Source: Hyaloperonospora brassicae (taxonomy: Eukaryota; Oomycota; Peronosporomycetes; Peronosporales; Peronosporaceae). From it: a stretch of DNA of 64,000 nt. Location: assembly GCA_947650285.1 (NCBI GenBank), contig CANTFL010000909.1, positions 49,308 through 113,307 of the forward strand, in the 5' to 3' direction. The notes beneath the pieces are model-generated. The model was given only the letters and a program-made list of their open reading frames with translations, did not search any database and was not told where the DNA came from. Positions within the stretch are counted from its first letter, which is position 1. Each line of letters begins with the position of its first letter. Below are positions 15,482-57,167 of the stretch, piece after piece. Made by a program: the position numbers and the translations under genes.

Positions 15482-15875
15482 TGTAACGGGGCAGCCCTTT
15501 ACATGGAAATTGTCATTTGGAAGTTAATGACAAAAAAGAATAATATGCTGAATTATCTTTTAACAATATCACCAATGGTGGTGATATTGGTGAATCGACC
15601 AAAGGGTCTGCTCATTGGTTGATATCTTGACAATATCAACCCGCCAATCGCCGCACGACGTGCGCAATGAGTGGTGACGAGATGTCACCATACACTCAAT
15701 AATATTAACATAATTAAGTCAGGTTAAACAGAGAGACAGTAGCAAAAAGACTTAATTATATTAATACAACAGTTTTACTTTTCCTTTATCTACGCTTCCT
15801 CGTTCACCTCGTGTACGTCTGTCGGGGCACCCGAAATCCTTGCGTTAAGTTTACGCAAGGGTGTGCCCCGTTGCA
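15482..15875 (+). repeat. A1 5' LTR
   Basis: 394 bp. It contains a series of local hairpins, e.g. GGTTGATAT / ATATCAACC and CCTTGCGT / ACGCAAGG. It carries variants also seen in the 5' LTRs of A2 and A3 (for example CTTGACAATATCAAC and the CTTTTCCTTTATCTACGC block), while the A1 3' LTR differs at many sites. Confidence 0.93.
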
Positions 15876-15919
15876 CCTGGTAGCACTTCGTAGTCCTTCC
15901 AAGGACCATAACATCCATC

Positions 15920-17073
15920 ATGAACATGTTGGATGATGAAGAGACCTTTCACGCCACGCGTGAAGGGTTTACCCATTTGAGCGACATCGAATGGGGTGCG
16001 GTAGAACGAATGAGTTCTACCGTAGGCGAGTTCGCCATTAGCGCCATGTTGGAGTCTCTAGACAGCGACCAACAACATGCCGCTATAGCCAAGTTTATTC
16101 GAAGTGAACTTGTCGCCGAAAGGGAGAAAGTAGCCTTGCTTCACCAGCAAGGCTCTCAACAGGCCGAGCCGTTGAGAGAACTTGGTGCTCAACAGACAGA
16201 GCTGTTCAGACAGCAGTAATTCCATGCTGCTGTGGGCGGGACGGCACATGCGCGTCGTCCCGAGGTCATGAAGGTTGACATCTCCAAGTACAGTGAGTCC
16301 CGGAGGACTCCCTGTTACTATGGTTTGTCGAACTCGACAGAGCCTTAAGGGCTCGTCACGTCGAAGATGAGCAAATGAAACTCACATTTGCTCAGACCCG
16401 CTTGGCAGGGCGTGCCAAAACTTGGTCCCTGGGACTCGAGAGTAGCGACCCAAATGTGGTTAGGTCGCTAGATGACTTCAAGTCCCGGCTCAGACAAACG
16501 TTTGAGCCGCCACAAGCTGAGTTCAGGGCTCGTTCTGAGCTCCTGAAACTCAAGCAGGGTAAGCGTGATGTGCACGCTTACGCAAAACATATACGACTCC
16601 TAGCGATTAGTATAACTGCTAACCCAGTTCATGAACACACGTTGATTACGGTGTTCATCCAAGGGCTCGCAGAAGGGCCCGTCAGGAGCCACCTGTTCCG
16701 CCTAGAGCTGAATACGCTGGAAGATGCGATATCAGCCGCGGAACAGGAAGCCTTTAGCATGAGACAGGCTCATGCTAGCTCAAACTCTTACCGTCCACCA
16801 AGAAGACAAGAGATCGGAGGTCCAGAACCAATGGACCTCTGCTACGTTGAGAGCGAGAGACCTCGCTCTTCAAACAACAAACGATTGCAGAAGTGCAATC
16901 GTTGTCAGAAGTTAGGGCACTTCGCACATGAGTGTAGCGCTCCACGCCCAGTACCAAACAGTACTGAGCGAAATGGACGACCATTTGCCAGAAAGGGTAA
17001 TGGGCGTGGGTCCAGCGCTGTTGCGAAGCCGCAACAGCGAGACGGACCAGTAAAAAATGGTCGGGATCAGTAG
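15920..17073 (+). pseudogene. gag: A1 gag (nucleocapsid-type, disrupted)
   Basis: Starts at ATG 15920 (MNMLDDEETFHATREG). The retrotransposon gag domain is at 16375-16800 (QTRLAGRAKTW, then FKSRLRQTFEPP and LKQGKRDVHAYAKHIRLLAI). A CCHC zinc knuckle CNRCQKLGHFAHEC (C-x2-C-x4-H-x4-C) sits near 16890, before a basic Gly/Arg tail. This is structural capsid and nucleic-acid-binding protein. The frame is broken by a TAA at 16217-16219 (private to A1) and by a one-base deletion near 16293 that A2 shares but A3 lacks. The terminal TAG (17071-17073) lies inside the frameshift stem. Confidence 0.9.
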
Positions 17074-17094
17074 GGGCGGAGCGCCCTACTGATC
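17052..17094 (+). promoter_or_regulatory. Predicted -1 ribosomal frameshift signal, gag to pol
   Basis: The heptamer A AAA AAT (17052-17058) is in the correct phase (GTA AAA AAT in gag). Six bases later an 11-bp perfect stem forms between GATCAGTAGGG (17065-17075) and CCCTACTGATC (17084-17094), enclosing the gag stop TAG. The -1 frame is open from the slip site into the protease. The same layout occurs at 32264-32270 (A2, minus) and 51139-51145 (A3). Confidence 0.75.
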
Positions 17095-18323
17095 CAGCAA
17101 CCTCAAGAGAATTTGCAAATCTCTTGACGAAAGTTGCTCCAGATACACAATCATTGTGTGTCTCTGCACCTGGTGATGACGTTTCGCTCATCACCTTGAA
17201 GTTGGAAGCGACAAATGATTTGTCGCTTTGTGACCTAGTAGACTGTGGGGCGTCGAACAACTTTGTTCGTCGCCAGTCACTAGAGGGTCGTAGGCTCAAG
17301 TTCGTTAAGCGCGACATTCCCCTCACGACAATGACGGTGCGCCTTGCAACAGGCGCATTGATCACCGTTGAGAAACGTGTAGTACGAATCCACTACACGT
17401 TAGAGGGCAAACAGTACGATGATGACTTCATCGTACTAGATCTGGATGACAAATTTGATGTCATCCTGGGATTACCTTGGCTCAGAATGTACGAGCCAAG
17501 GGTGAGCTGGCAGCATCGATCCGTGAAGATGCCTGCCGCTTGTTCATCAGATGGCCATCTGATGAACATCTTGGAGCGTCCACAAGCGTGTGGATGTTCT
17601 GCGAGTGAGTGCGATGGCCTCACTTGCGGTACGGTCGTTAGCACAACTGCACAAGATCACAGTGTAGGTGATCACTACACTGTGGAGCAAGCTCCCGGCG
17701 GCTGTACAAGAGTACAGGCTGCGCCGAAGGTCCACCACTCGAATAAGTCGAGTGGACCGGGACATGGATGCATGCCTAGCGGGCAGCATCTTAGAAGTAA
17801 GAAACCTGTTGCCGCCAAAGGGCAACATAGAAATCCTAGGTCGACTGGAGAGTCGACCGTAGAGGATCGGTCCCTGACTGTGGTTGCACAGCCACAGTCA
17901 GAAGACGTCGAGGGAATAAGTCCCCACGTACTTGAGGAAGGAATTTCTCAAGAGTCACTTGCTGAAGGATCAGGCCTTCAGCAACCTGTAAAACGAAGTT
18001 ACCAGGAAGTAACCGAGACGTTGAACGTCTTTGTTAATGACGGATCAAGCGTAGGCGCTTATACGCTTGATCTGATTGTGCCTCCGAAGTTAACTTCGGA
18101 GATAACTCAGTTGCCAACGCTAGAACCGAAACGGTTCTTGCGTGATCTGCGCAGTGGCAAAGTCCATCAGATCTACATACTCGTCGCAGAGGATGAGTAT
18201 GTGACCGATATTCGGTCGGCCACAGTATTTGCTGAGAACGAACGGGTTATCAGCAGCTCATCAATGGACGAAAGTGTCCTCGATGAGAAGACTCGGATTG
18301 AGCGATACGCGTCTCAATCCTGA
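17052..18323 (+). pseudogene. pol: A1 pol: aspartic protease and linker
   Basis: Pol lies in the -1 frame relative to gag. There is no usable ATG, so expression would be by frameshifting. The retropepsin active site appears as LVDCGASNNFV (DCGA in place of the usual DSGA/DTGA), with the C-terminal hallmark DVILGLPWLRMYEPRV about 75 residues later. A ~200-residue polar linker follows before RT, unusually long and without a recognised domain. The frame ends in TGA at 18321-18323, a stop at the same place in A2 and A3; recognisable pol resumes directly in the same frame. Confidence 0.85.
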
Positions 18324-20195
18324 AAGTCACTTCAGGCAAATCCTTTGTACAAGGATGTTATCGAATTCAAGGATGTGTTCCCTGAATCCGTACCTTGCGA
18401 TTTGCCTAAGGACAAAGGCACTCGACACGAGATCGAGCTCAAACCGGGCTCGAAGTACTGTGTCATGAAGCAGTATCCACTACCTCGTGAACAAGTACTA
18501 GCGATCGACAAGTTCTTTGCCGATCGCTAAGCAGCGGGCCATGTGAGGAAATCAACATCCCCTCGCATCTCTCCGACCTTCTGTGTGCGAAAGGCCACAG
18601 GAGGATGGCGGATAGTGCACGCATTCAACAAATTGAATGCTGCAACGGTACCGGCTCAGACGCCGATACCGAGGAAGGACGTAATCATAGATGGTATGTC
18701 AAAGAGTACCATCTTTTCGTTCATGGATCTGATGGATGGATTCCATCAGATCCTCATGCGTGAACGGGACATCCCATTCACGGCAGTGAGTACCCCTAGC
18801 GGGATGATGTGGGAGTGGCTTGTTATGCCACAGGGGCTGAGCAATGCCCTTGCTACTTTCAACAAATGTGTCACAAATCTGTTGAGACCGGTGCGAGACT
18901 TCGCACCGAGTTACTTCGACGATGTGTTCGTCCATGGTCAGGCTATGGACGGAAAGACGGACGTTGAAGTTCACAGAACTCACGTTCGTCAGGTTCTTCA
19001 ACTTATGCGCAAGCATAAGTTGTACGCCAACCTCAAGAAGTGTATATTCGCGGCTAGCGAAATACCACTTCTTGGGTGCATCGTGGGTAAACACGGCGTA
19101 CGCCCTGATCCCGAAAAGATAAAGGCGATCACCGACTGGCCAGTGCCAGTCGATGTCAAGGTGATAAGAAAGTTCCTTGGGCTGGTGGAGTACTTGCACA
19201 AGTACTCGCGCAACTACGCCGAAATGACGGTACATCTCTCTTGTTTACTCAAGAAAAATGTCAAGTGGTCATGGAAAGCTGACTGCCAGCGTTCCTTTGA
19301 GGGTATCAAGCAATGCTTGATGCAATCGCCGGTATTGGCGATTGCAGATCAGGACAGACCATTTCATGTGGTCTGTGACGCCAGCAATTTTGCCATCGGC
19401 TGTGCATAAATGCAGTTCGATGCAGATGGCGCAAAGCGCGTCATCTGTTATCAGTCGCGTCAGCTGCAAGTAGCTGAGCGTAATTACCCAGTGCATTACA
19501 AGGAACTCCTTGCCATGAAGTACGCACTGGCTAAGTTCCAGGTCTATCTCTTGGGAGATAGACCGTTTGCTTTCTATACGGACCATGCGTCATTACGCAC
19601 GGCCGTAAAAAGCCCACACCTCTCGCAAAGGATGGTGATGTGGCTGGCTTTCTTCGCGGAGTATATCTTCTCCGTGAAGTATAAACCAGGACGACTAAAC
19701 GTCGTCGCTGATGCGCTCTCGCGCCGGCCCGATTTCGAGCCGGCCGCACAAATCAACAGTGAGGATAAGCCCGCTGTTGCGACATTGTCAGTCAGTGTCC
19801 CGTCGTCAAGCTTACTTGACGACGTACGAAAGGCATACGCGGAAGATAAGGATCTTCTGCGATTGATGGATCATCTGGTGAATCCATTCAGTAAATCCAT
19901 GAGGGATTTACCAGCTTTGTACCGATCCGATGAAGATCTGTATAGTACACGCAACGGATTGCTGTACTATACAGCTGTTGCCGACGACACGCCTCGTGTC
20001 GTCGTACCCGCTCATCATGATTTGAGTTTACGCATCGTGTATGAGTGTCACGATGCCCCAACAGGAGGCCATCGTGGTAGAGAAAAGACTTACCTCACGG
20101 TAAGTCGTGACTTTTACTGGCCACGCCAGTATCAGTTTGTCCTCAAGTACATACGTGTTTGCAAGGTTTGTCAACGGGTGAAGCCTAGTCCTTGA
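18324..20195 (+). pseudogene. pol: A1 pol: reverse transcriptase, RNase H, integrase zinc finger
   Basis: One reading frame interrupted by stops. The RT domain has KATGGWRIVHAFNKLNA, LDLMDGFHQI, MPQGLSNALATFNKCV and the catalytic YFDD (SYFDDVFVHG, near 18912). RNase H has VVCDAS, KELLAMKYAL, YTDHASLRTA and VVADALSRRP. The integrase H2C2 finger is ECHDAPTGGHRGREKTYLTV ... CKVCQRV near 20045-20180. Stops: TAA 18528-18530 and TGA 20193-20195 are shared by all three A copies; TAA 19407-19409 is private to A1 (A3 has a leucine codon there). Confidence 0.9.
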
Positions 20196-20987
20196 TCCCG
20201 TGCGCCATTACAGCCTCTGCCTGTTCCGACAGAGTGATGGCAGTCCGTTTCAATGGACTTCGTCTTCGGTTTTCCCGAAGACTCTCACAAGAATAATGGT
20301 ATTCTTGTGTTTGTTGACCGATTCAGCAAGATGGTGCATCTTGCTGCAGTCCCTGAGTCGATCAAGGCTCAAGGTTGTGCTCGTGGCTTTCTAGACACGG
20401 TCTTTAGACTCCACGGGTTACCCCGTGAACTCGTATCCGACCGTGACCCTCGGTTCACGGCGGCATTTTGGCAAACCGAGTTCCGTTCTCTCGGAACACT
20501 ATTGGAGATGTCTACTTCTGACCATCCGGAAACCGATGGTCAGACGGAACGTGCGAACCGTGTCCTCGAAGAGATCCTTCGAGGATATGTCCACTCGTTT
20601 CCGAGTTGGAGCGAATTCCTACCCATGGTGGAATTCGCCATCAATAATCCGGTGCATGCTTCCACACAGCACACACCGTTTTACGTTAATGGTTTACGCC
20701 ATCCACGTGTGCCCGTCCTTCTAGAGGGTGACTCTTGGATAAGGGGGGAGGGACTCGCTCGAGCAAAAACCGTTTTGGCTCTTGCTCATCACGTGTCGAC
20801 GCTAACGTCGTCACGTATGATGCCGATGTCGATCAAGTCGACATCGATGAAGAAGATCATGTCAATAATAGCGGCGACGCTATTACTGACTCGGATGATG
20901 ATGACGATGCTGGTATATTCAGCATCGTCAACGATTATGCCAGCGAGGAAGAAGACAACCTCGCTGAAGAAGAGAGCAATCTCTTAG
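20196..20987 (+). pseudogene. pol: A1 pol: integrase catalytic core
   Basis: A DDE core is readable: first Asp in SVSMDFVFGFPE, second in LVSDRDPRFTAAFW, Glu in the segment ETDGQTERANRVLEE. This enzyme joins element cDNA to chromosomal DNA. A TGA at 20235-20237 just before the core occurs in all three copies. After LLEGDSWIRG the frame shifts at a G-run (20741-20751); the useful frame continues from 20735. Confidence 0.9.
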
Positions 20988-21968
20988 CAGTGCGCACGAA
21001 GCGCACTGAAAGACAAAACAAAGAGTCAGCAGAGAACTTCCTGCTGACTCGAGAAGCGGTAGTCCGTTTCGTTCAGGACTCCATCGCAAATGCGGTGGAC
21101 CGTCAGAAACGGAACGCAGACAAGAATGGAAGAGCTAATGTTCTTTCATTTAAAGTTAATTACCTAGTACTACTGTCTACGGTAAACTTACCTGGACACG
21201 CAGTCACTAGTGTCGGCAGTAGTAAACTACTGCCGAAGTACATTGGACCATTTCGAGTGTTGCACCGCAAAGGCAATGCATACACACTAGAATTGCCACG
21301 TAAGATGCGCACAAATCCTAAGTTTTACGTGTGGGAGACTCAGGCCGTACTGTCGGTGCAAGCCTTCTTCTTCCGATGAAGATAGCCCCCACGTTCAAGA
21401 ACATCCATCAAGTTCTTGCGTTCGCTCTCCAGACGATCCGTCTGGTCGCGCAGATATGATACCTCGGAACTTAATCGAGATATCTCCCCGCGAGCTGTCG
21501 CCAGCTCGCCGGAAAGGGATCGGATATCCCGCTCGACCTGAAGCTGCGCTGTGGCATAATCGGCGCGGTCTCTCGCCCGATCAGCCTCGCGATCCTTGCG
21601 GTTCTTCCGCATGGTATCAGTCAAAGCGTAGCGCCGGTCGCGCTCGTGCTTCAAGTCATCGCGCGATTCATCGATTGCGCGATCCATCTCGTAAAGGTCG
21701 TGATGGTGAACCGAATCATCTGGAGGAGGTCTTTCCTCCTCCACCACATTCTTTGGTGTATTCTCACGGTGGTCAACACTTTCTAGTGGAGCGTATCTTG
21801 AATCACCGTGACGATTCAGGATCAAGGGCGAGCTTCCTCGTCCAGTGGCGGGGGTATCCACCCTCTTGGAACAGCTGGGAGACCAGCTCTCAGCTGTTGA
21901 TGGATGTTGAAGGTCTCGTCCGCCAGTATGACGAGACCCATCCGATGAGTCCGAGGGCCCATTGGTAA
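20735..21968 (+). pseudogene. pol: A1 pol C-terminus: acidic linker, GPF/Y module, chromodomain
   Basis: After an acidic Asp/Glu-rich stretch (DSDDDDDAGI, SEEEDNLAEEESN) comes the integrase GPF/Y module (KLLPKYIGPFRVLHRKGNAY). Near 21310 the frame is lost relative to A2 and A3. At 21456-21968 an Arg/Ser/Pro-rich spacer leads to a chromodomain ([31 protein letters not shown]) ending at 21968. Chromodomains of this kind direct Ty3-type integration to histone-marked chromatin. The codons overlap the opposite-strand ORF. Confidence 0.85.
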
Positions 21969-22515
21969 ACACGCGCTTTTGGCGCTTGTAGAAGGATTGC
22001 AAGTTTGCAATCGCGTCACGCATCTCCTCCGAGATGTGTGCCCTTCCCCAGGGCGAACTTAGGGAATAAATGTCCCTATGTGCACGCTGCGAGTTGTCAA
22101 CACAACTTGCACAAGGGTCTCCCCATGTGAGGCAAGGAATGTCTGCCTCACTCGACAAACAGTGCAACCGGTACCTGGCACCGGTTGGCGTTCGCTTTTC
22201 AAACCTGAGGCGTGTCGCCTCAAGTTTCTTGAGCCACCCTTCTCGTCCAAAATTCTTTACGTTTTGGACGAACGCGTTCCACGCAGCCAAAAGCGATGTT
22301 TTGTCACGCTTTTGATTGCTGTTGTACCATCGAGGTCTAAGGAAGACATCGAGATAAAAATCTTCCTCAGCGCGAAAGTTGCTCGCGCTGGGACTCAAGC
22401 CGTGAAGCTCAGTCGCATCGAATAAGAGTATTCGATGGTGTTGGCTTGTCTCGTGAGACAAGCTATTGATGAGCCGTTCGGGCAAACGCCACGGCTTCAG
22501 CTCATTACGCTTCAC
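21340..22515 (-). CDS. A1 opposite-strand ORF, part 2 (coiled-coil protein)
   Basis: A 391-codon minus-strand frame opened by GTG, not ATG, directly after part 1. Its central region ([20 protein letters not shown], then [15 protein letters not shown] and [19 protein letters not shown]) looks globular and carries a cysteine cluster ([12 protein letters not shown]). The C-terminal ~120 residues are strongly helical and charged ([31 protein letters not shown]), a long coiled coil. I do not recognise the family. It is open in all three A copies except for a late frameshift in A3. It overlaps the chromodomain codons on the other strand. Confidence 0.65.
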   Translation of the reverse strand: MKRNELKPWRLPERLINSLSHETSQHHRILLFDATELHGLSPSASNFRAEEDFYLDVFLRPRWYNSNQKRDKTSLLAAWNAFVQNVKNFGREGWLKKLEATRLRFEKRTPTGARYRLHCLSSEADIPCLTWGDPCASCVDNSQRAHRDIYSLSSPWGRAHISEEMRDAIANLQSFYKRQKRVFTNGPSDSSDGSRHTGGRDLQHPSTAESWSPSCSKRVDTPATGRGSSPLILNRHGDSRYAPLESVDHRENTPKNVVEEERPPPDDSVHHHDLYEMDRAIDESRDDLKHERDRRYALTDTMRKNRKDREADRARDRADYATAQLQVERDIRSLSGELATARGEISRLSSEVSYLRDQTDRLESERKNLMDVLERGGYLHRKKKACTDSTA

Positions 22516-22949
22516 GGTGGTACCTTGTGGGTACCACGGTTGTCAGAATGACGATGGTGCAAGCTATCGTCAAGTCGCTCGTGCGACGGAGCACGAGCTG
22601 ATTGCGGTGGTAAGGAATGATATTCCTCACCACACTGATCATCGTCATCACTGCCGAACAGACTGTGATGCAACTCACGAGTCCGTTCGTTCGGCAGTGG
22701 CCTTGGCGAATACTGAGAAGTCGCCGGTGATCCAGACGCCTCTGGAGCATTGCCCGAGTTAGACACGTCTGACTCGCCAGAGTAGATGACCTCAATGTCG
22801 GGGTCATCATGCGCACGCGTTGAGGTTCCGTGTGCACCTGCAGCACCTGTTGCTGCAGGCGAAGAACGAACAGCAGACGACGAATCGTCTGCCGCAGAGT
22901 CTGGCACAGCACCGGGCTGTGTAGGCCTTGAGTCACCCCGCATAGACAT
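22512..22949 (-). CDS. A1 opposite-strand ORF, part 1 (acidic disordered N-terminus)
   Basis: Starts at ATG 22949 (MSMRGDSRPTQPGAV), about 130 bp inside the 3' LTR, and runs towards pol for 145 codons. It is rich in Ser, Ala, Asp and His (PDSAADDSSSAVRSSPAA, DDPDIEVIYSGESDVS, LFGSDDDDQCGEEYHSLP), so probably disordered. Its TGA overlaps the first codon of part 2 by four bases (GTGA), and part 2 is in the -1 frame, so one protein from both parts would need a frameshift or a splice. Transcription would have to come from the 3' LTR or the short leader beside it. Confidence 0.6.
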   Translation of the reverse strand: MSMRGDSRPTQPGAVPDSAADDSSSAVRSSPAATGAAGAHGTSTRAHDDPDIEVIYSGESDVSNSGNAPEASGSPATSQYSPRPLPNERTRELHHSLFGSDDDDQCGEEYHSLPPQSARAPSHERLDDSLHHRHSDNRGTHKVPP

Positions 22950-23077
22950 GTTAACTATGCGAGGTCAGGTTGAGTTATGAACGGAACTGACCCAACAAGT
23001 GCTCTCTGTCCCAATGGAGCCCAACGGGTGGCCACCACATTTTCGATAGTCACACGATGACTATCAGCTAGGGGGGA
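22950..23077. other. Leader between opposite-strand ORF and 3' LTR of A1
   Basis: A non-coding interval with the purine tract AGGGGGGA at its LTR side (plus-strand primer) and a hairpin GATAGTCA / TGACTATC immediately before it. It could hold the 5' untranslated region of the minus-strand ORF. Confidence 0.5.
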
Positions 23078-23469
23078 TGTAACGAGGCAGCCCGTTACAT
23101 GGAAATTGTCATTTGAGAGATAATGACAACAAAGAATATTAAGTGAATATTCTTTGAACAATATCACCGATAATGGTGATATTGGTGAAGCGACCAAAGG
23201 GTCTGCTCATTGGTTGATATCGTGATGATATCAACCCACCAATCGACGCAGGACGCGCGCAATGAGTGGTGACGAGACGTCGTCATACATTTAGTTATAT
23301 TAACATAATTAAGTCAGGTTAAACAGAGAGACAGTAGCAAAAAGACTTAATTATATGAATACAACAGTTTACTTTTTTCTTACCCTACGCTTCCTCGTTC
23401 GCCTCGTGTACGTCTGTCGGGGCACCAAAACCTTTGCGTTATGTTCACGCAAGGGTGTGCCCCGTTACA
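23078..23469 (+). repeat. A1 3' LTR
   Basis: 392 bp. Starts TGTAACGAGG (A in place of G at the eighth base, also in the A2 3' LTR) and ends GTGCCCCGTTACA. It differs from the A1 5' LTR at roughly one site in ten by eye. It shares TATATGAATACAACAGTTTAC with the A2 3' LTR instead of the 5'-type ATATTAATACAACAGTTTTAC. Confidence 0.93.
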
Positions 23470-26245: not shown

Positions 26246-26372
26246 TCCCCCTAGCTGATAGTCATCGTGTGACTATCGAAAATGTGGTGGCCACCCGTTG
26301 GGCTCCATTGGGACAGAGAGCACTTGTTGGGTCAGTTCCGTTCATAACTCAACCTGACCTCGCATAGTTAAC

Positions 26373-30994: not shown

Positions 30995-30998
30995 ACTT

Positions 30999-33402: not shown

Positions 33403-33446
33403 GATGGATGTTATGGTCCTTGGAAGGACTACGAAGTGCTACCAGG

Positions 33447-42800: not shown

Positions 42801-42814
42801 TATAACAACTTACG

Positions 42815-43235: not shown

Positions 43236-43716
43236 AGTCACGGTCAGGCACTGTGATAGTTCTTATTTAACTGATCAATCATTAAACAGAGTTTAATGTG
43301 TTTCCAGGTATACGTAACGACTTTTTTCTGGGTTGGAATACTAGCAATTTGCCCTTAAAAAACTGTGACCGGGGTGAGCTCTTTACATAATTGGTACGAA
43401 TGTATCATTTTAGATTATAATTCATCTATATGACACTCAATCATTATTACTCGAGAAGATGTAATGTTGGCTGAATACTACCCCCGAAAATAATATCAAC
43501 GAGTACTCCACTTATTGGTTCATAGTGACACCACATCAACCAACATTAGTTACCAATCGCTGCTGGGCGCGCGCAATGGATGTTGAGCAAGAACCTTACA
43601 TAGGAGATTGTAGTTTAATATAGTTCGATTAAGAAAAGATTGTTTATTCAAGAAACTTAACGATATTGAATACAATTCTACTTGTTCCTATAAACAGAGC
43701 TTTCTGGTTCTGTTTG

Positions 43717-44007
43717 TGTTGGAATATTGGAAATAGGTGCAATGGTACGTAAAGGCGATCGGAGTGTTCGGCCGGTGACTTGGGGTTTGATTTGAAAATA
43801 AGATGTCACAAACTCGCTGTGCGCACAAGATGGACGCAGAGTGACAAGCAGGATAGTGATTCAAGTAGGGCTAGAATGCGTGCGAAATGGATGACTGGAG
43901 CAGAGAAATTTGGGGAGCATGGCAGAGAAGAGAGAACTAGTAACAAAAAACAACGTATCTTATTGTTCACCTAACGCTTCCTTCTCGCAACACGCATCTT
44001 GCCAACA
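43717..44007 (+). repeat. Copia 5' LTR
   Basis: 291 bp, the same length as the 3' LTR and about 90% identical by eye. Immediately followed by GGTTATGAGCC, a plausible primer-binding site overlapping the gag start codon. Confidence 0.93.
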
Positions 44008-44011
44008 GGTT

Positions 44012-45516
44012 ATGAGCCTAATTGCCGCAACCACTAAACCGACTACGAAGACATCAGGGGGTGTCCCGCGAGCCGCGCCTGGGCGCGGCGCGCCAGCGCA
44101 TGCGCATACCGCACCTGCAGTCGTTAACGATGGACCCGCTCGCGAGAGCGAACAGCGAGACGATAAGATCCTCGCCGCGCTCGCCGCACTCACCGATCGA
44201 CTGGCGAGCCTCGATTCGTCGCAGAGAGTGCGAGACGAGGAGGAGCGCATGCTTGGTGCCGTGGAGAGCGGACTCTTCGCCTCGAAACTCGGCGCCAACA
44301 TGCGCGGCCGACCGATGACGATCGACGCGATCGGAGACACGGAGGAGAAAGCACCGGTGCCGCGTGGGTATCAGCGCGAAACTGATCTTGGCACGTCGCG
44401 ATTCGCATCGCTCGAGCCACCTCGCACGCGCGCAGCACCTCAGCTGCAGCAGCGCGCACCAGCACATGCGCCACCTCCGCAGGATTATGCAACGCTACCG
44501 CCGCCGCAAGTAGTCTCTCCGCCACAAGTTTATGTGCGACCGGACCTCAACGGCTATGGGATGCCGTCGGCAAGCCAGCGGAAGTTGAACATACGCAAGT
44601 TCGATGGCACAGAGCTGTAGCGCAGACTCGGGAGCGAATTATTTGATCGGGGGCTTACGTTCCTGGCGCGGTGAGTCTCGCGGAAGCGTCGTGCGGTTTC
44701 AGATGGACCTAAGACGTTAAGGTCGACCTGCTTGGGCACTTTCTCGCCGGCACGGCTGAGAGCTAATATCACAAGCAGGTCGATACCTGTTGAATGAAAA
44801 TCACCCACACTGTAGTACATCATGGAGCAGCTCCTGCGCACGTTCAAGACATCAATCACGGCAAGCCAGGCGAAAGAGTTATTCATGGCCAAGAAGGACG
44901 CACGACGCACCTGGGCCGAGCACTTCCTGTGTATGGTCGCCGTCAGTGAGGCGCGTGGTGGTGCTGACTCGCTTGTTTTTGATATCATCGTCCACCATGC
45001 TTCGCCGAAGCTGATGAATGTGATGCGGATAAGTATGAACCCACGCAAGTCGACTACCTGCGCCATGCCGAGGAGCTGGCGCACTTCGCGCAGTTCATTA
45101 AGCAAGGCAGCAGCGCGGTGGGTTGTGAGGTCGTCGCCACGCACGAGGAAGGAAAACCCAAGGGCGCGATCACGTGCTACCGATGTGGGCGACTAGGCCA
45201 CATCGCGGCCGACTGTTCCGCGCGAGTCGTGCACGACGACGAGACACCCGCGGAGGGTGGAGGCGCCAGCATGATCCTTGCACTGACCGAGAAGCGCAGG
45301 GCGACCACAAAGAAGCGCAACAGAAGGAAGAAGGGCTCGCGCGGCAAGGACGCCGCAGCTACCAATGCAAGCGACGGAGCGCGAGCCATGGACGACTCAT
45401 GCGGCTTCTTGCTTGCGACGAGCGACGGAGTACGGGCCACGGACGGCACACGCGGCTTCGTACTTGCAGGCGACCGACGCCATGGGCGTCGTCCGAGGAG
45501 ACTGGATCCTCGATAG
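44012..45516 (+). pseudogene. gag: Copia gag (disrupted)
   Basis: Start chosen at ATG 44012 (MSLIAATTKPTTKTSGG), directly after the LTR; upstream codons are LTR sequence. An Ala/Pro-rich N-terminal region precedes a capsid-like core (44822-45060: LRTFKTSITASQAKELFMAK, WAEHFLCMVAVSEARGG) and the zinc knuckle CYRCGRLGHIAADC (about 45177). A TAG at 44618-44620 and further stops to 44821, plus a frame change near 45060-45118, break it. Confidence 0.88.
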
Positions 45517-46779
45517 CGGAGCGAGCCGGCATATTGTCAACGACGAGTCGCTGCTGCTCGACTCGACGGCTTGCAGCGACGAGATTGAGATGGCAGACGG
45601 CGATATTCTTCACTTGACGCGTGTTGGCATCGTGCGCCTCGAGGTTCTCGCTCGCAGCGCTGAGGCGGTAGTGGCGCTTACGGATATGTACTTGGCGCCG
45701 CGACTGGCAAATACCACTGTGTCGTATGGCGAGCTTGCGAACAAAGGATTTGCCCTAGTGCACTCCGGCGACAGGCAATCGCTCGCTCGGTGCAGCGATG
45801 GTGCGGTCGCGTTCGATGTCAAAATCGACAGCAACGTGCTGTATGTCGCGACGAAGGCTACGCGCGACAAGGAAGGTGCAGGGGGCGACGCGATCATGGC
45901 GGCGCTCGAAGCTCATGCAACGGAAACCAACGCCGACGATCCGCACGACGCCTTGCTGTTGCACTGGCACCAGCGACTCGGTCACCTTGCGCACGACACG
46001 ATCGAACGCATGGCGCGAGATTCGGTATCAGGCATTCGGCTCAGCAACAATAAACGCATGGCGTGCGTGTCGTGCCTCGAGGGCAAGCAGAAGCGCAATG
46101 CGCAGTCCCAACAAGACAGCGGCACGCACTCGCCTATCGATCGCATCGGCGGCGTCATATGCTCGGACCTGAAGGGTCCGATGACGCCGCAGGACCGACA
46201 CGGCAATCGTTACCTTGTGAACTTCGTTGATCACAAGAGCAACTACTGCCGAGTATTCCTCGCGCGCACGAAGGACGCTGCGGCGAAGCAGTTCGAGGCG
46301 TTCCTCGTTCATTTCTAGAAGCTCTTTGGGTTCAAGGTCCAAGTGCTCCACACGGACGGCGGCAGAGAATACGCCAACGTGGACCTGTTCTGCGAGCGCA
46401 CGGGCGTCCGCTCCAAGTGTCGTTGGCGCGCAATCAGGCCTCAAATGGCAAGGCGGAACGAATGCACCGGACAGTGCTGAACCTCGCGCGAAGCATGATG
46501 TTTGCCTGCGCGCTGCCCCTGATGTTCTGGGTAGAAGCGGTGCTTTACACCGTCCACATCCTCAATCAGGAGCCCCACGCGAGCTTACGCAAAGAGAGCG
46601 TCACCACTCGAGGTGCTGACGGACAAGACGCCGGATCTGCGTGGAAGTGTCGTTTTTGGCTCATAGTGCAGCGTTTAGAGGGAACCGCGCAAGAACTAGC
46701 TGCTGCAGCGCTCGACGCGCGCCATCATTGTCGGCGTCAGCAAGGGAACCAAGGGATACAAGGTGCTGCTACCGCGTGA
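45365..46779 (+). pseudogene. pol: Copia pol: protease and integrase (disrupted)
   Basis: Protease active site WILDSGASRHIVND near 45505. Then the gag-pre-integrase domain (LLHWHQRLGHLAHDTIERMA) with the H2C2 finger (ACVSCLEGKQK). The integrase core follows: first Asp in GGVICSDLKGPM, second in LHTDGGREYANVDLF, Glu in SNGKAERMHRTVLN (46440-46480). A TAG at 46316-46318 and a frameshift near 46410 interrupt it. Confidence 0.9.
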
Positions 46780-48688
46780 CAACAAAGTGGTCGTCACGCA
46801 GCACATCAAAAATATCGAGACTTTGACGGAGGCGCAAAACGCGCAACTCCAACGCGCGATGGACGTCGGCGATCGAGCCGGAGGCCAGGTAGAGACGGAC
46901 GCGCCAGCAGCAGCAGTGGCGAACGATGGTCGCGCAGACGGAAACAGGGCGACGCGTAAAAGCAGAAAGCGATGGACGCGAGCGGCGCATGGAACACGCG
47001 GGGGACGAAACGCGCAGAAGCGGCTACTCGTCAGAAGGAGACAGTCGCGAGCGGAGAAGCCGTAAATGCTGCTTTCGAGCACGATTCGCTTAACTACGGA
47101 CAGGCGATGCGCAGCGGCAAGCGCGAAGGTTGGGTGAAGGCGATGCAATAAGTGGTCTCCGCGCTCGAGGCCAACGACGTCTGACTATCACTAGGCGAAC
47201 GGCAGGAGCGCATGCGCTGCACACCAAATGGGTCTACAAGACCAAGACAGATGCGTAGGGCAACCTCGAGCGGCTGAAGGCGCGACTGGTGTCTTGTGGC
47301 AACGAACAGGTGCTTGGCGTCGACTACACGCTCACCTTCGCTGCCGTGAGGGACCTATCGACGGTCAAAGTGATCCTGGCGCTTGCGGCTACGTGGGGGT
47401 GCCTTCCAAGCACGGTGACATCCCCAACGCCTACGTTAAAGCGGACAAGGAGCCTCACCACCACATCTATCTACAGATGCCGCGCGGCATGCCAGTCCCG
47501 AAGGATTCGATACGAGCGCAAGACATTTCGAACGGTAGCGAGCTGGTGCTGGATCTGCGGAAGAGACTTTACGGGCTTAAGCAGGCAGGATAGCTGTGGA
47601 GCCAGCTGCTGCACTCGAATCTCTCTACTGCCGGTTTTACGCGGTGTGAGAGCGACACGTGTTTTTCATGGAAGCGCGACGACGACGACCTCGTCGTGGT
47701 CGGCGTGTATGTCGAAGTTCTTCTAGCGACAGGGACGAGCGCGGCGGCGGTCGAGCGGTCCTTCACAAGCCTCGCGTCGTTGTCGATCAAGCACCTGGGG
47801 CGTGTCAGCAAGTTCCTGGGCATGCGCGTGACGCACAACGGTCAGAATGGGTATACGCTCGATCAGGAGGAGGCCATCAGAGATCTCCTACGCGACAACG
47901 GAAATCCTGACGTCAAATCTACGTGGACGCCGATCGACGACAGCTGCTACGAGTTGGAGGATGGCGACGCGGAGCTTCTTGGGACGCCAAGAGCGCAAAT
48001 AGGAGCGACTGTGCGCCAGTTCCAGTCGCTGGTCGGCTCGCTGCTCTAGATGGCGCGTTGCACGCGCCCCAATATAGCATTTGCGGTGCACAAGGTCACG
48101 AAACGAGCACACGCGCCTCGACTAGCAGACTGGAAACCGGCTGAACGCATCTCGCGATACCTCAAGGAAACGGCGGCGCTCAAGGTCACGATGATACCCG
48201 AAGACAATCTTGGTGCGGCGGTGCGCCTAGAAGCTTTTATTGACGCCGATTTTGCCGCCGACAAGACGGACCGGAAGTCAATGACGGGCGGCATCGTAAT
48301 TCTGAACGGGATGGCCGTCAGCTGCGGTGCGCGGAAGCAGGGAGGCGTCTCCCTGTCGACGATGGAGGCGGAGTTTTTCGCGGCGAGTGAGGTCGCGCGC
48401 GAGCTGCTCGGCCTACGCGAGATGTTGTGCGAAGTGGGCGTAGAGCCCGCGCTCCCGATGCAGTTGCGGTTGGACAACCAGGCGGCGATCGCGCAGATCA
48501 CGGGAGAGGCATCGTCGCTGAAGGCAAAACATTTGGATGTGCGCCTTAAGTTCCTTTGCGACTACTCGCGTCGCGGTATCATCACGGCGAGCTATGTCAG
48601 GTCGGAGCAGATGCTCGCAGACCTCCTCACAAACACTCTGGACGCGACGAAGCTCTCGGCACAGCGCGCACTCGTGCGCATTGGATAA
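46763..48688 (+). pseudogene. pol: Copia pol: RT and RNase H (disrupted)
   Basis: After a charged linker (46763-47065) come RT pieces in several frames: YGQAMRSGKREGWVKAMQ near 47095, LKARLVSCGNEQVLGVDYT, DIPNAYVKADKEPHHHIYLQ, and LVLDLRKRLYGLKQAG. The catalytic box, usually YVDD, is YVEV here (VVGVYVEVLLATGT, near 47710). RNase H is open at 48050-48688 (FIDADFAADKTDRKSMTGG, STMEAEFFAASEVA, LRLDNQAAIAQI). In-frame stops at 47591-47593 and 48047-48049. Confidence 0.9.
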
Positions 48689-48810
48689 GAAAAGGTCAAG
48701 GACAATAAGGGTGATCAAGGAGCTCGAGCATGGAGGAGCACAAGGACAAGGACATATGCAAGCTCAAGAATTGGGACCTGGTGTGAGAGCAAGTCACGAC
48801 CGAGTAGAAG

Positions 48811-49101
48811 TGTTGGAATGCTGGAAATGGGTGCAAGGGTACGTAAAGGCGATCGGAGTGTTTTGTCGGTGACTTGGGGATTTATTGGGACACATGATGT
48901 CACAAAATCGCTGTGCGCACAAGATGGACGCAGAGTGACAAGCAGGATATTGATTCAAGTAGGGCTAAAGTGGTTGCGAAATGGATGACTAAAGCAGAGA
49001 AATTTGGGGAGCATGGCAGAGAAGAGAGAACTAGTAACAAAAAACAACGTATCTTATTGTTCACCTAACGCTTCCTTCTCGCAACACGCATCTTGCTAAC
49101 A
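48811..49101 (+). repeat. Copia 3' LTR
   Basis: 291 bp, TGTTGGAAT...TAACA. Roughly 20-25 differences from the 5' LTR by eye, so this insertion is not recent. Confidence 0.93.
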
Positions 49102-49216
49102 GTTTGCCTGCTCGCGCTTCCTGACATCACGTGTACGTGACGTCGGGAGTACGCAGCCTTTTGTTCTATCACCACAAGGTATTACTAGTCATCTAGTAAG
49201 AGCGTGCCCCGTTGCA

Positions 49217-49567: not shown

Positions 49568-49960
49568 TGTGACGGGGCAGCCCGTTACATGGAAGTGTCG
49601 CTTTAAAAGAAAGTGACAACAAAGAATATTAAGTGAATACTCTTTGAACAATATCACCGATAATGGTAATATTGGTGAAGCGACCAAAGGGTCTGCTCAT
49701 TGGTTGATATCTTGACAATATCAACCCGCCAATCGCCGCACGACGTGCGCAATGAGTGGTGACGAGACGTCACCATACACTCAATAATATTAATATAATT
49801 AAGTCAGGTTAAACAGAGAGACAGTAGCAAAAAGACTTAATTATATTAATACAACAATTTTACTTTTCCTTTATCTACGCTTCCTCGTTCACCTCGTGTA
49901 CGTCTGTCGGGGCACCCAAATCCCTTGCGTTAAGTTTACGCAAGGGTGTGCCCCGTTACA
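49568..49960 (+). repeat. A3 5' LTR
   Basis: 393 bp beginning TGTGACGGGG. Shares the GTGTCGCTTTAAAAGAAAGTG stem and CTTTTCCTTTATCTACGC with the A2 5' LTR, and differs clearly from its own 3' LTR. Confidence 0.93.
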
Positions 49961-50004
49961 CCTGGTAGCACTTCGTAGTCCTTCCAAGGACCATAACATC
50001 CATC

Positions 50005-51160
50005 ATGAACATGTTGGATGATGAAGAGACCTTTCACGCCACGCGTGAAGGGTTTACCCATTTGAGCGACATCGAATGGGGTGCGGTAGAACGAATGAGT
50101 TCTACCGTAGGCGAGTTCGCCATTAGCGCCATGTTGGAGTCTCTAGACAGCGACCAACAACATGCCGCTATAGCCAAGTTTATTCGAAGTGAACTTGCTC
50201 GCCGAAAGGGAGAAAGTAGCCTTGCTTCACCAGCAAGGCTCTCAACAGGCCGAGCCGTTGAGAGAACTCGGTGCTCAACAGACAGAGCTGTTGAGACAGC
50301 AGCAATTCCATGCTGCTGTGGGCGGGACGGCGCATGCGCGTCGTCCCGAAGTCATGAAGGTTGACATCTCCAAGTACAGTGGAGTCCCGGAGGACTCCCT
50401 GTTACTATGGTTTGTCGAACTCGACAGAGCCTTAAGGGCTCGTCACGTCGAAGATGAGCAAATGAAACTCACATTTGCTCAGACCCACTTGGCAGGGCGT
50501 GCCAAAACTTGGTCCCTGGGACTCGAGAGTAGCGACCCAAATGTGGTTAGGTAGCTAGATGACTTCAAGTCCCGGCTCAGACAAACGTTTGAGCCGCCAC
50601 AAGCTGAGTTCAGGGCTCGTTCTGAGCTCCTGAAACTCAAGCAGGGTAAGCGTGATGTGCACGCTTACGCAAAACATATACGACTCCTAGCGATTAGTAT
50701 AACTGCCAACCCAGTACATGAACACACGTTGATTACGGTGTTCATGCAAGGGCTCGCAGAAGGGCCCGTCAGGAGCCACCTGTTCCGCCTAGAGCTGAAT
50801 ACGCTGGAAGATGCGATATCAGCCGCGGAACAGGAAGCCTTTAGCATGAGACAGGCTCATGCTAGCTCAAACTCTTACCGTCCACCAAGACGACAAGAGA
50901 TCGGAGGTCCAGAACCAATGGACCTCTGCTACGTTGAGAGCGAGAGACCTCGCTCTTCAAACAACAAACGATTGCAGAAGTGCAATCGTTGTCAGAAGTT
51001 AGGGCACTTCGCACATGAGTGTAGCGCTCCACGCCCAGTACCAAACAGTACTGAGCGAAATGGACGACCATTTGCCAGAAAGGGTAATGGGCGTGGGTCC
51101 AGCGCTGTTGCGAAGCCGCAACAGCGAGACGGACCAGTAAAAAATGGTCGGGGTCAGTAG
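50005..51160 (+). pseudogene. gag: A3 gag (disrupted)
   Basis: Starts at ATG 50005. A one-base insertion near 50197 (CTTGCTCGCC against CTTGTCGCC in A1) shifts the frame, and a TAG at 50552-50554 stops the second frame where A1 has a serine codon. The rest, with the CCHC knuckle, is open to TAG 51158-51160. The frameshift heptamer is at 51139-51145 followed by the same stem, with one G-T pair in place of A-T. Confidence 0.9.
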
Positions 51161-52409
51161 GGGCGGAGCGCCCTACTGATCCAGCAACATCAAGAGAATT
51201 TGCAAATCTCTTGACGAAAGTTGCTCCAGATACACAATCATTGTGTGTCTCTGCACCTGGTGATGACGTTTCGCTCATCACCTTGAAGTTGGAAGCGAAA
51301 ATGATTTGTCGCTTCGTGCCCTAGTAGACTGTGGGGCGTCGAACAACTTTGTTCGTCGCCAGTCACTAGAGGGTCGTAGGCTCAAGTTCGTTGAGCGCGA
51401 CATTCCTCTCACGAGGATGACGGTGCGCCTTGCAACAGGCGCATTGATCACCGTTGAGAAACGTGTAGAACGAATCCACTACACGTTAGAGGGCGAACAG
51501 TACGATGATGACTTCATCGTACTAGATCTGGATGACAAATTTGATGTCATCCTGGGATTACCTTGGCTCAGAATGTACGAGCCAAGGGTGAGCTGGCAGC
51601 ATCGATCCGTGAAGATGCCTGCCGCTTGTTCATCAGATGGCCATCTGATGAACATCTTGGAGCGTCCACAAGCGTGTGGATGTTCTGCGAGTGAGTGCGA
51701 TGGCCTCACTTGCGGTACGGTCGTTAGCACAACTGCACAAGATCACAGTGTAGTTGATCACTACACTGTGGAGCAAGCTCCCGGCGGCTGTACAGGAGTA
51801 CAGGCTGCGCCGAAGGTCCACCACTCGAATAAGTCGAGTGGACCGGGACATGGATGCATGCCTAGCGGGCAGCATCTTAGAAGTAAGAAATCTGTTGCCG
51901 CCAAAGGGCAACATAGAAATCCTAGGTCGACTGGAGAGTCGACCGTAGAGGATCGGTCCCTGATTGTGGTTGCACAGCCACAGTCAGAAGACGTCGAGGG
52001 AATAAGTCCCCACGTACTTGAGGAAGGAATTTCTCAAGAGTCACTTGCTGAAGGATCAGGCCTTCAGCAACCTGTAAAACGAAGTTCCCAGGAAGTAACC
52101 GAGACGTTGAACGTCTTGGTTAATGACGGATCAAGCGTAGGCGCTTATACGCTTGATCTGATTGTGCCTCCGAAGTTAACTTCGGAGATAACTCAGTTGC
52201 CAACGCTAGAACCGAAACGGTTCTTGCGCGATCTGCGCAGTGGCAAAGTCCATCAGATCTGCATACTCGTCGCAGAGGATGAGTATGTGACCGATATTCG
52301 GTCGGCCACAGTATTTGCTGAGAACGAACGGGTTATCAGCAGCTCATCAATGGACGAAAGTGTCCTCGATGAGAAGACTCGGATTGAGCGATACGCGTCT
52401 CAATCCTGA
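51139..52409 (+). pseudogene. pol: A3 pol: protease and linker
   Basis: The -1 frame from the slip site is broken by a one-base deletion near 51297 (GCGAAAATGA against GCGACAAATGA). From 51306 it is open with LVDCGASNNFV and DVILGLPWLRMYEPRV, ending at the shared TGA 52407-52409. Confidence 0.87.
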
Positions 52410-54281: not shown

Positions 54282-55075
54282 TCCCGTGCGCCATTACAGC
54301 CTCTGCCTGTTCCGACAGAGTGATGGCAGTCCGTTTCAATGGACTTCGTCTTCGGTTTTCCCGAAGGCTCTCACAAGAATAATGGTATTCTTGTGTTTGT
54401 AGACCGATTCAGCAAGATGGTCCATCTTGCTGCTGTCCCTGAGTCAATCACAGGCTCAAGGTTGTGCTCGTGTCTTTCTAGACACGGTCTTTAGACTCCA
54501 CGGGTTACCCCGTGAACTCGTATCCGACCGTGACCCTCGGTTCACGGCGGCATTTTGGCAAGCCGTGTTCCGTACTCTCGGAACACGATTGGAGATGTCT
54601 ACTTCTGACCATCCGGAAACCGATGGTCAGACGGAACGTGCGAACCGTGTCCTCGAAGAGATCCTTCGAGGATATGTCCACTCGTTTCCGAGTTGGAGCG
54701 AATTCCTACCCATGGTGGAATTCGCCATCAATAATCCGGTGCATGCTTCCACACAGCACACACCGTTTTACGTTAATGGTTTACGCCATCCACGTGTGCC
54801 CGTCCTTCTAGAGGGTGACTCTTGGATAAGGGGGAGGGACTCGCTCGAGCAAAAACCGTTTTGGCTCTTGCTCATCACGTGTCGACGCTAACGTCGTCAC
54901 GTATGATGCCGATGTCGATCAAGTCGACATCGATGAAGAAGATCACCTCAATAATAGCGGCGACGCTATTACTGACTCGGATGATGATGACGATGCTGGT
55001 ATATTCAGCATCGTCAACGATTATGCCAGCGAGGAAGAAGACAACCTCGCTGAAGAAGAGAGCAATCTCTTAGCA
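54282..55075 (+). pseudogene. pol: A3 pol: integrase core and acidic linker
   Basis: The DDE core is present (LVSDRDPRFTAAFW, then TDGQTERANRVLEE) but a one-base insertion near 54450 splits off the first Asp segment. The frame is lost again after GDSWIRGRDS, as in A2. The acidic linker follows in another frame. Confidence 0.85.
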
Positions 55076-57033: not shown

Positions 57034-57167
57034 GTTAACTATGCGAGGTCAAGCTGAATAGTGAACGGAACGGACCCAACAAGTGCTCTCAGTCCCAATG
57101 GTGGCCCAACGGGTGGCCACCACGTTTTCGATAGTCACACGGTGACTATCAGTTAAGGGGGGGGTGA

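What the first reader, a model, noticed from the sequence alone, without database searches (positions are those of the whole stretch)
15482..23469. Element A1 is tiled end to end with short perfect inverted repeats, including its coding regions
Reading through A1, a perfect stem with 8-11 bp arms and a small loop recurs every few tens of bases, in LTRs, gag, pol and the opposite-strand ORF. Examples: GGTAGAAC/GTTCTACC (16000-16021), GAGCAAATG/CATTTGCTC (16369-16393), CCACTCG/CGAGTGG (17735-17755), GATCAAGCGTA/TACGCTTGATC (18043-18072), the 20-bp palindrome CTCCGAAGTTAACTTCGGAG (18082-18101), CGATGTCGA/TCGACATCG (20824-20846), GAGTCAGCAG/CTGCTGACTC (21023-21050), CATCGAATA/TATTCGATG (22416-22437), GCTTGTCTC/GAGACAAGC (22444-22463). 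A2 and A3 show the same; the Copia element and the PX gene do not by eye. Codon choice appears to be shaped to fold the RNA or DNA into a string of hairpins. I know of no description of this for a Gypsy family.
Basis: seen in the sequence. Interest (0 to 1): 0.88.

Follow-up and report, generated by a model that had tools for sequence, protein, structure and literature searches.

The report
Retrotransposons tiled with fixed-length hairpins
A group of jumping genes in an oomycete genome has its whole sequence, protein-coding parts included, shaped into a string of perfect little hairpins whose stem length differs from family to family, which suggests a second code hidden under the genes.

Summary
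A1, A2 and A3 (Ty3/Gypsy elements with a chromodomain, oomycete genome) hold 85, 86 and 89 perfect stems (arm >=8, loop <=12) against 1.3-1.4 in shuffles; the window's Copia element holds 3 against 1.2. With protein and codon usage fixed, a 4.8-kb pol frame of family A folds at z -35 (sense) and -26 (antisense). Three related families carry the trait with other grammars: D mostly 5-bp arms, B and C 8-9 bp, A 8-12 bp. Twelve Copia, four LINE-like and two other Gypsy loci lack it. Inside stems G-U is no better tolerated than A-C. In D, fixed differences are depleted in stems for two of three reference copies. Sister families keep the grammar but most hairpins move. All four families also carry a long antisense frame at the 3' end; in B and C it encodes a conserved protein. 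Best reading: a selected array of sites read by an element-encoded nucleic-acid-binding protein. Rivals left open: hairpins that keep sense and antisense RNAs apart, and a reverse-transcriptase mutation bias. The mechanism is inferred.

The parts
15482..23469 (+). Element A1, Ty3/Gypsy LTR element with chromodomain, 85 perfect stems (arm >=8, loop 0-12)
   Evidence: GGGAC on both sides (sequence printed)
15482..15875 (+). A1 5' LTR (5 stems counted in 15475-15872)
23078..23469 (+). A1 3' LTR (5 stems counted in 23072-23466)
16297..17070 (+). gag piece (Retrotrans_gag, zinc knuckle just under its cut-off), 9 stems v 0.39 in codon shuffles
17001..18320 (+). protease piece (RVP_2), 19 stems v 0.62
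18531..19406 (+). reverse transcriptase piece (RVT_1), 10 stems v 0.43
19410..20192 (+). RNase H / integrase H2C2 piece, 6 stems v 0.08
20238..20984 (+). integrase core piece (rve, just under its cut-off), 10 stems v 0.13
21291..21965 (+). piece with chromodomain
21343..22542 (-). Antisense open frame, 400 aa stop-free, no Pfam match, relatives in other oomycetes, confident C-terminal helix; 12 stems v 0.34
16000..16021 (.). quoted hairpin
16369..16393 (.). quoted hairpin (10 bp with the flanking pair)
17735..17755 (.). quoted hairpin (8 bp)
18043..18072 (.). quoted hairpin (11 bp)
18082..18101 (.). quoted 20-bp perfect palindrome
20824..20846 (.). quoted hairpin (9 bp)
21023..21050 (.). quoted hairpin (10 bp)
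22416..22437 (.). quoted hairpin (9 bp)
22444..22463 (.). quoted hairpin (9 bp)
17541..17568. longest stem in the list: 14-bp arms without loop
25852..33837 (-). Element A2, 86 stems
49568..57557 (+). Element A3, 89 stems
43716..49105 (+). Copia element without the trait (control)

Best explanation
A group of related oomycete Ty3/Gypsy families with a chromodomain carries, along LTRs, UTRs and reading frames, a selected array of perfect Watson-Crick hairpins with a family-specific grammar (D mostly 5-bp arms with 3-5-nt loops; B and C 8-9 bp; A 8-12 bp). Shown: the array, its excess over protein- and codon-preserving nulls, its absence from the other retroelements tested, pairing that is strict inside stems on both strands, depletion of fixed differences in D stems for two of three reference copies, and turnover of individual hairpins between families. 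Inferred: the hairpins are many equivalent, low-information sites for a nucleic-acid-binding protein that the element itself encodes, which marks, compacts and packages its own RNA (and later its cDNA) among host RNAs. A co-evolving reader would explain why stem length follows the element family, why stem shape and not place is kept, and why other retroelements of the same cell lack it. That the array is a selected feature I hold at about 0.8; the element-encoded reader at the confidence given.
For: Excess over codon-preserving shuffles at family-specific arm lengths in full frames (loops 3-10): D 5 bp 104 v 28.8, 6 bp 20 v 6.7, 7 bp 4 v 1.4, >=8 bp 2 v 0.9; B 8 and 9 bp 20 v 0.8 and 11 v 0.2, then 1 and 1; C 8 v 0.7 and 9 v 0.3, then 0; A 21, 15, 18, 5, 2 at 8-12 bp v 1.0, 0.2, 0.1, 0.0, 0.0. 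Other retroelements of the same genome: none of 12 Copia, 4 LINE-like and 2 other Gypsy loci shows a comparable peak. B and C (35% nt divergence in pol) share arm length and an arm composition (G at the outer pair, C at the third), although 3 of 28 B hairpins and 4 of 16 C hairpins are intact at the homologous place: five different hairpins, three of them with compensatory pairs. Between D subfamilies, fixed differences at third codon positions are 0.061, 0.072 and 0.106 in stems against 0.150, 0.149 and 0.141 outside for reference copies L050, L038 and L061; single-copy differences are 0.146, 0.144, 0.116 v 0.168, 0.170, 0.177. Fisher p for the fixed ones 0.002, 0.007, 0.23, on counts rebuilt from rounded rates. 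Stems also fill non-coding parts: A1 7.1-12.7/kb v 10.4 coding, B 8.1 and 9.1 v 6.7, D 13.9-30.9 v 20.8.
Against: No loop consensus: A 88 different loops in 89 stems, B 39 in 46, C 23 in 25, D 102 in 163 (both LTRs counted), though D loops lean to T first (0.40) and A last (0.36). Known dispersed packaging signals share a motif. G-U is shunned even in long stems, which a protein that only needs folded RNA would not demand. In C the coding part has far fewer stems than the LTR (3.3 v 9.1/kb, the latter 3 stems). One of three reference copies gives no significant depletion, and its single-copy differences are also lower in stems (0.116 v 0.177). No binding, expression or probing data exist here; Gag was not examined for hairpin binding; the antisense proteins of A, B/C and D are not shown to be related.
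Confidence: 0.33

Rival explanations
1. Keeping sense and antisense RNA apart: these elements carry an antisense gene, so both strands are transcribed; hairpins on both strands hinder their annealing into Dicer substrates (or hide silencing targets).
For: All four families have a stop-free antisense frame of 400, 465, 505 and 472 aa at the 3' end, against shuffle maxima of 239-293. In B and C it encodes related proteins (34.5% identity over about 450 aa, E 3e-70), with third-position divergence 0.70 v 0.45 and 0.41 at positions 1 and 2 where it lies outside pol, and relatives in Phytophthora, Peronospora and Hyaloperonospora. Structure is about equal on both strands. In Phytophthora infestans most small RNAs map to transposable elements, predominantly LTR retrotransposons, and those on Gypsy Pi-1a and Albatross lie in both orientations (PMC3522703, abstract and passages). 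The window Copia element has no antisense frame over 212 aa.
Against: Gives no reason for a particular arm length or for only about 3 stems per kb in C. Hairpins fill the whole element, while the antisense frames lie at the 3' end. Antisense transcription itself was not observed; whether the control LINE-like and Gypsy elements have antisense genes was not tested.
Confidence: 0.27
2. Mutation, not function: the reverse transcriptase of this group folds back or switches template at quasi-palindromes and rewrites one arm as the complement of the other, up to an arm length set by the enzyme.
For: Explains strict pairing without strand preference, stems in coding and non-coding parts, restriction to one RT lineage and a lineage-specific arm length. 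Single-copy substitutions made 41 stems where 29.2 were expected over A, B, C and D1, about 2 sd if the four sd are combined by hand: a mild excess in its favour. In L061 v L056 the 9 lost hairpins have 2 v 9 changes in the two arms and are more one-sided than control windows (1.00 v 0.13), as single breakages would also give.
Against: Unshared hairpins of B v C differ equally in both arms (84 v 87 changes in 25 hairpins; C v B 39 v 45 in 12) and no more one-sidedly than random windows (mean |d5-d3| 1.24 v 1.67, sd 0.29; 1.50 v 1.77, sd 0.42); A v B, A v D and D v A likewise lie near their controls. Single-copy substitutions broke 169 stems (178.4 expected), so making does not balance breaking; many may be post-insertion host mutations, which weakens this. 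Compensatory pairs between D subfamilies are 4, 2 and 2, beside 31, 29 and 22 pairs lost in one group. Density in coding parts is not lower than in non-coding parts taken together in A1 or D.
Confidence: 0.2
3. Selection for mRNA stability or translation: general RNA folding (GORS-like) without a specific reader.
For: Large folding excess on the sense strand (z -34.8, -11.2, -5.1, -13.0 for A-D). At the ends of 5-bp stems of six D copies G-U near-misses exceed expectation more than A-C do (148 v 54.2 and 90 v 47.9, summed).
Against: Inside stems G-U is not favoured over A-C: D 19 v 27.3 expected and 15 v 22.8; B 4 v 1.9 and 10 v 2.0; C 3 v 2.5 and 5 v 2.2; A 36 v 3.5 and 37 v 3.1. Stems of mostly 5 bp do not maximise stability.
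Confidence: 0.09
4. DNA-level role: perfect inverted repeats act as cruciforms or ssDNA hairpins in the cDNA or chromatin.
For: Strand symmetry and strict pairing. In B the A-C near-misses (G-T on the minus strand) exceed G-T, 10 v 4 (small numbers).
Against: 5-bp arms are too short for ordinary cruciforms (general knowledge, not tested here).
Confidence: 0.07
5. Chance, composition or codon-usage artefact.
For: None of weight; controls show only mild departures (told in Tried and rejected).
Against: Dinucleotide and codon-preserving nulls and 18 loci of other retroelements.
Confidence: 0.01

Closest known systems
[quoted passage not shown]
   Same: Extensive structure across an entire genome, suggested to shield RNA from host defence or aid persistence (PMC9784701, passages).
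   Different: Here an LTR retrotransposon, folding excess about equal on both strands, G-U not favoured inside stems, family-specific stem lengths.
Multiple dispersed RNA packaging signals (Twarock/Stockley model)
   Same: Many short motifs dispersed over the genome that bind the coat protein (PMC6281560, abstract; other papers seen only in the listing).
   Different: Those share a coat-protein recognition motif; here no loop consensus was found and no protein contact is known.
Yeast Ty3 genomic RNA structure (SHAPE-MaP)
   Same: A Ty3/Gypsy element with mapped RNA structure and a well-folded core covering about 19.4% of the RNA (PMC11381356, abstract and passages).
   Different: The terms 'hairpins', 'z-score' and 'packaging signal' do not occur in its main text; no tiling with perfect stems is described in what I saw.
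Oomycete LTR elements with a chromodomain (Chronos) and chromoviruses
   Same: Oomycete Ty3/Gypsy element with a chromodomain next to the integrase (PMC5348765, passages).
   Different: That paper's main text has no occurrence of hairpin, palindrom-, inverted or stem-loop. Whether A-D are Chronos, chromoviruses or another group was not tested.
Antisense genes of retroviruses such as HTLV-1 HBZ (recalled, no call)
   Same: A gene on the minus strand at the 3' end of an LTR element.

Membership tests
Ty3/Gypsy LTR retrotransposon with chromodomain | Two LTRs (TG..CA) and a target-site duplication | tested here: met
   LTRs by BLAST, GGGAC on both sides by eye
Ty3/Gypsy LTR retrotransposon with chromodomain | gag, protease, RT, RNase H, integrase in this order | tested here: met
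   (A1 in pieces; L059; L061 and L062 pol frames only, gag not scanned there; L060 not scanned)
Ty3/Gypsy LTR retrotransposon with chromodomain | Chromodomain after the integrase | tested here: met
   Pfam Chromo in A1, L059, L061; not listed for the open frame of L062
Chromovirus clade sensu stricto | RT phylogeny with reference chromoviruses | not tested
   Tree holds only loci of this genome
Genome-scale ordered RNA structure | Folding-energy excess over most of the genome against matched shuffles | tested here: met
Genome-scale ordered RNA structure | Carrier is an RNA virus | tested here: not met
   LTR retrotransposon
Genome-scale ordered RNA structure | Sense-RNA structure, with G-U pairs usable | tested here: not met
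   Predicted G-U share falls on both strands in A-D (A 0.064 v 0.126 sense, 0.063 v 0.123 antisense); inside stems. At stem ends of D some G-U excess
Dispersed packaging signals | Many stem-loops along the genome | tested here: met
Dispersed packaging signals | Shared recognition motif, usually in the loop | tested here: inconclusive
   No loop consensus; biased arm composition in B and C and biased closing pair and loop ends in D
Dispersed packaging signals | Binding by capsid or Gag protein | not testable with these tools
   No binding data
Known structured RNA family | Match to an Rfam model at gathering score | tested here: not met
   0 matches in window 15400-34000, A1 and A2; A3 not searched

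The most novel reading that the evidence does not exclude
These retrotransposons carry a second, protein-independent code: a genome-long array of perfect hairpins of quantised stem length (5, 8-9 or about 10 bp) which an element-encoded factor, perhaps the antisense-encoded RS-rich protein, measures like a ruler, so that each family recognises its own nucleic acid by hairpin length rather than by sequence. The length shifted between families while the places of the hairpins turned over. This would be a new principle of self-recognition in retroelements, coupled to a conserved gene on the opposite strand.
Probability: 0.32. Interest if true: 0.96.

Novelty: new variant of a known kind. Interest (0 to 1): 0.88.

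Why it matters
A folding z of about -35 at fixed protein and codon usage (25 shuffles, so the sd is rough) is a very strong whole-frame structure signal, and its strict pairing and family-specific stem length do not fit ordinary RNA-structure selection. If a protein reads it, LTR retrotransposons have a distributed self-recognition code that simple binding assays can test. If it keeps sense and antisense RNA apart, it is a visible imprint of silencing on coding sequence. If it is a mutation bias, it exposes a hairpin-rewriting activity of a reverse transcriptase. The trait can be sought in any genome with a few lines of code.

Tried and rejected
Stepwise stem improvement in the L005/L008 lineage: suggested, but with outgroups most differences are derived in A1-A3 (of 66 differences 53 are polarised as derived in A1-A3, 15 of them breaking pairs of L005 stems; 7 derived in L005/L008, 6 undecided). 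The window copies carry shared decay; rejected.

Homologous hairpins between distant families: A v B 0 of 60 and A v D 0 of 52 kept; D v A 4 of 86. Conserved individual structures rejected as the main signal.

Regular spacing: no more regular than random non-overlapping placement (coefficient of variation A 0.78 v 0.70, B 0.76 v 0.85, C 0.87 v 0.88; D more clustered, 0.98 v 0.70).

Arm motif of B and C: may partly reflect codon structure; by eye weaker in the non-coding stems.

Departures in controls: 5-bp stems 20 v 12.0 and 22 v 12.7 in LINE-like L077 and L080, 11 v 5.2 in Copia L068; 7-bp stems 3 v 0.8 and 3 v 0.9 in Copia L064 and L065. Window 34000-43700 has 6 stems, shuffle maximum 4. 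Two frames of the window Copia fold at z -1.9 to -2.8, Copia L065 at -3.2. None approaches families A, B or D. LINE-like is my reading of the translated frames, not a database result.

Relatives elsewhere: RT proteins found, but no DNA in viral contigs or genome contigs, so hairpins were examined in one genome only. Rfam 0 matches.

Literature: ten searches (listings only), of which searches returned no paper. Seen beyond listings: passages of PMC5348765, PMC3522703, PMC9784701, PMC11381356; abstracts of PMC6281560 and PMC11381356. Quasi-palindrome correction and HTLV-1 HBZ are recalled.

The odds of the first two explanations changed for this reason.


Full report
WHAT WAS CHECKED. All nine quoted stems are present at the stated coordinates and recur in A2 and A3. 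With arms >=8 and loops 0-12 the three elements hold 85, 86 and 89 stems against 1.27, 1.43 and 1.38 in dinucleotide shuffles; the Copia element holds 3 (1.20) and three flanking stretches 6, 6 and 2 (2.75, 1.52, 1.15). Loops of 4 and 5 nt are commonest in A1 (17 stems each). Folding energy in 150-nt windows departs by about 4-5 sd on both strands over A1-A3 and is near zero on average elsewhere; 861 nt of A1 pol gave z -14.3 and -18.4 on the two strands (20 shuffles).

THE PROTEIN-CODING NULL. Shuffling synonymous codons within open pieces (protein and codon usage unchanged) leaves 0.08-0.62 stems where A1 has 6-19; L005, another copy of A, has 41 v 1.0 in 2,931 nt. For full-length open pol frames the folding z is -34.8 (A), -11.2 (B), -5.1 (C), -13.0 (D) on the sense strand and -26.3, -12.6, -5.7, -13.8 on the antisense; one other Gypsy, one LINE-like and two Copia frames range from -3.2 to +0.7 (25 shuffles each). 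In A only 10 of 61 stems lie in the register that pairs third with third codon positions, although 46% of chance stems do.

WHAT THE ELEMENT IS. A1 has gag, aspartyl protease, RT, RNase H, integrase and a chromodomain, LTRs at 15482-15875 and 23078-23469, and GGGAC on both sides (sequence). The window lies in a 100.6-Mb genome in 898 contigs; a 401-nt piece of A1 has 1,732 first-look candidates, of which 40 were scored, 95-100% identical. The RT of a family A copy is nearest, among the 120 proteins listed, to proteins of Phytophthora, Peronospora, Globisporangium and Aphanomyces and to unnamed ones, so the host is an oomycete; the species was not determined.

RELATED FAMILIES WITH OTHER GRAMMARS. 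They were drawn from the same genome. RT identity to A1 is 50-66% for B, C and D loci. Against codon shuffles, D copy L038 shows 4- and 5-bp stems in excess (112 v 63.5 and 64 v 19.2), 6-bp 9 v 4.6 and 0 of 7 bp or more; the full D frame L061 has 104 v 28.8 at 5 bp, 20 v 6.7 at 6, 4 v 1.4 at 7 and 2 v 0.9 beyond; loops are mostly 3-5 nt. B copy L013 has 15, 4, 1 at 8, 9, 10 bp, the full frame L059 20, 11, 1, so B is 8-9 bp; C has 8 v 0.7 and 9 v 0.3 at 8 and 9 bp; A has 21, 15, 18, 5, 2 at 8-12 bp. The D LTR holds 14 hairpins of 5 bp or more in 453 nt, in part a beaded array. Twelve Copia loci (19.1 kb of open frame) hold 3 stems of 8 bp or more, near the expectation of about 2.3 summed; four LINE-like and two other Gypsy loci show no comparable peak. 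B and C are sisters on a tree of loci from this genome only.

STRICT PAIRING. If folded sense RNA were the target, G-U should replace Watson-Crick pairs freely. Near-misses with one odd pair inside the stem, observed v codon shuffle: D, G-U 19 v 27.3, A-C 15 v 22.8; B, 4 v 1.9 and 10 v 2.0; C, 3 v 2.5 and 5 v 2.2; A, 36 v 3.5 and 37 v 3.1; perfect stems 107 v 20.6, 44 v 0.7, 24 v 0.8, 121 v 1.4. The equal excess in A is what decay by transitions would give. At the end pairs of D stems there is some G-U excess (148 v 54.2, A-C 90 v 47.9, summed over six D copies). The G-U share of predicted pairs falls on both strands in all four families.

UPKEEP AND TURNOVER. Between D1 and D2 (86-90% nt identity) fixed differences at third positions are about half as dense in stems as outside for two of three reference copies (p 0.007 and 0.002) and not significantly so for the third (p 0.23); single-copy differences differ less. 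L061 and L056 (98.5% identical) share 54 of 63 hairpins. Between B and C 3 of 28 and 4 of 16 are intact: five different hairpins, three with compensatory pairs; A keeps none of 60 in B and none of 52 in D; 4 of 86 D stems are intact in A. Grammar is kept and most places are not.

AN ANTISENSE GENE. At the 3' end, overlapping the end of pol, each family has a long stop-free antisense frame: A1 21343-22542 (400 aa), L059:6550-7944 (465), L060:6201-7715 (505), L061:5809-7224 (472); shuffles reach at most 239-293. Taken only where it lies outside pol, its length is reached in 0 of 400 shuffles for B and D, 13 for C and 11 for A1. The B and C proteins are related (34.5% over about 450 aa, E 3e-70), change most at third positions outside pol (0.70 v 0.45, 0.41) and have 28 listed relatives, the named ones in Phytophthora, Peronospora and Hyaloperonospora, with conserved cysteines and tryptophan, an RS-rich middle and a helical C-terminus. 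The A1 frame has 25 listed relatives, those named being from Hyaloperonospora. Pfam has no match. Whether the relatives in other species lie in retroelements was not tested, nor is A shown to be related to B/C or D. A1 v L062 gives no clear codon signal (16, 11, 19 changes at positions 1, 2, 3).

MECHANISM. The trait follows the element family and not the host, keeps a stem size and not a place, and is strict on both strands. I think that it is read by a factor encoded by the element: Gag nucleocapsid, or the antisense protein. The antisense gene also gives weight to a rival: if both strands are transcribed, hairpins on both would hinder their annealing, which explains strictness and the limits of the trait but not the stem length. 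A reverse-transcriptase mutation bias remains possible: changes are spread evenly over both arms, but stem-making single-copy changes are mildly in excess (41 v 29.2).

LIMITS.

Noticed in passing
21343-22542 (-); L059:6550-7944 (-); L060:6201-7715 (-); L061:5809-7224 (-): Long antisense frames at the 3' end of all four families; in B and C a conserved protein with an RS-rich middle and a helical C-terminus, with relatives in other Peronosporales. A conserved antisense gene in LTR elements is a finding of its own.
   Followed up: partly
15482-15875, 23078-23469, 25852-26252, 33372-33837, 49568-50035, 57161-57557: LTRs are more diverged than interiors: the A1 5' LTR (with some leader in the alignment) is 93-94% identical to the 5' LTRs of A2 and A3 but 88-91% to the three 3' LTRs, its own included, while 3.4 kb of the A1, A2 and A3 interiors are 98-99% identical. 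This does not fit simple LTR dating.
   Followed up: no
63784-64000: Part of another LTR of the A type (84% to the A1 5' LTR) at the end of the window, cut off by it.
   Followed up: no
L062:8300-8600: The 1,601-aa frame of this family A copy shows no Pfam chromodomain, whereas A1, L059 and L061 do; the antisense frame also breaks there.
   Followed up: no
L061:298-393: The D LTR carries two copies of an about 50-nt unit, each made of three 13-nt hairpins (5-bp arms, 3-nt loops) one after another.
   Followed up: partly
L059, L060, L061: In B and C hairpin arms favour G at the outer pair and C at the third position; in D the loop is closed by C-G or T-A in 75% of stems.
   Followed up: partly
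L059 pol frame: Among one-mismatch stems of B, A-C (G-T on the minus strand) outnumber G-T, 10 v 4; too few to interpret.
   Followed up: no
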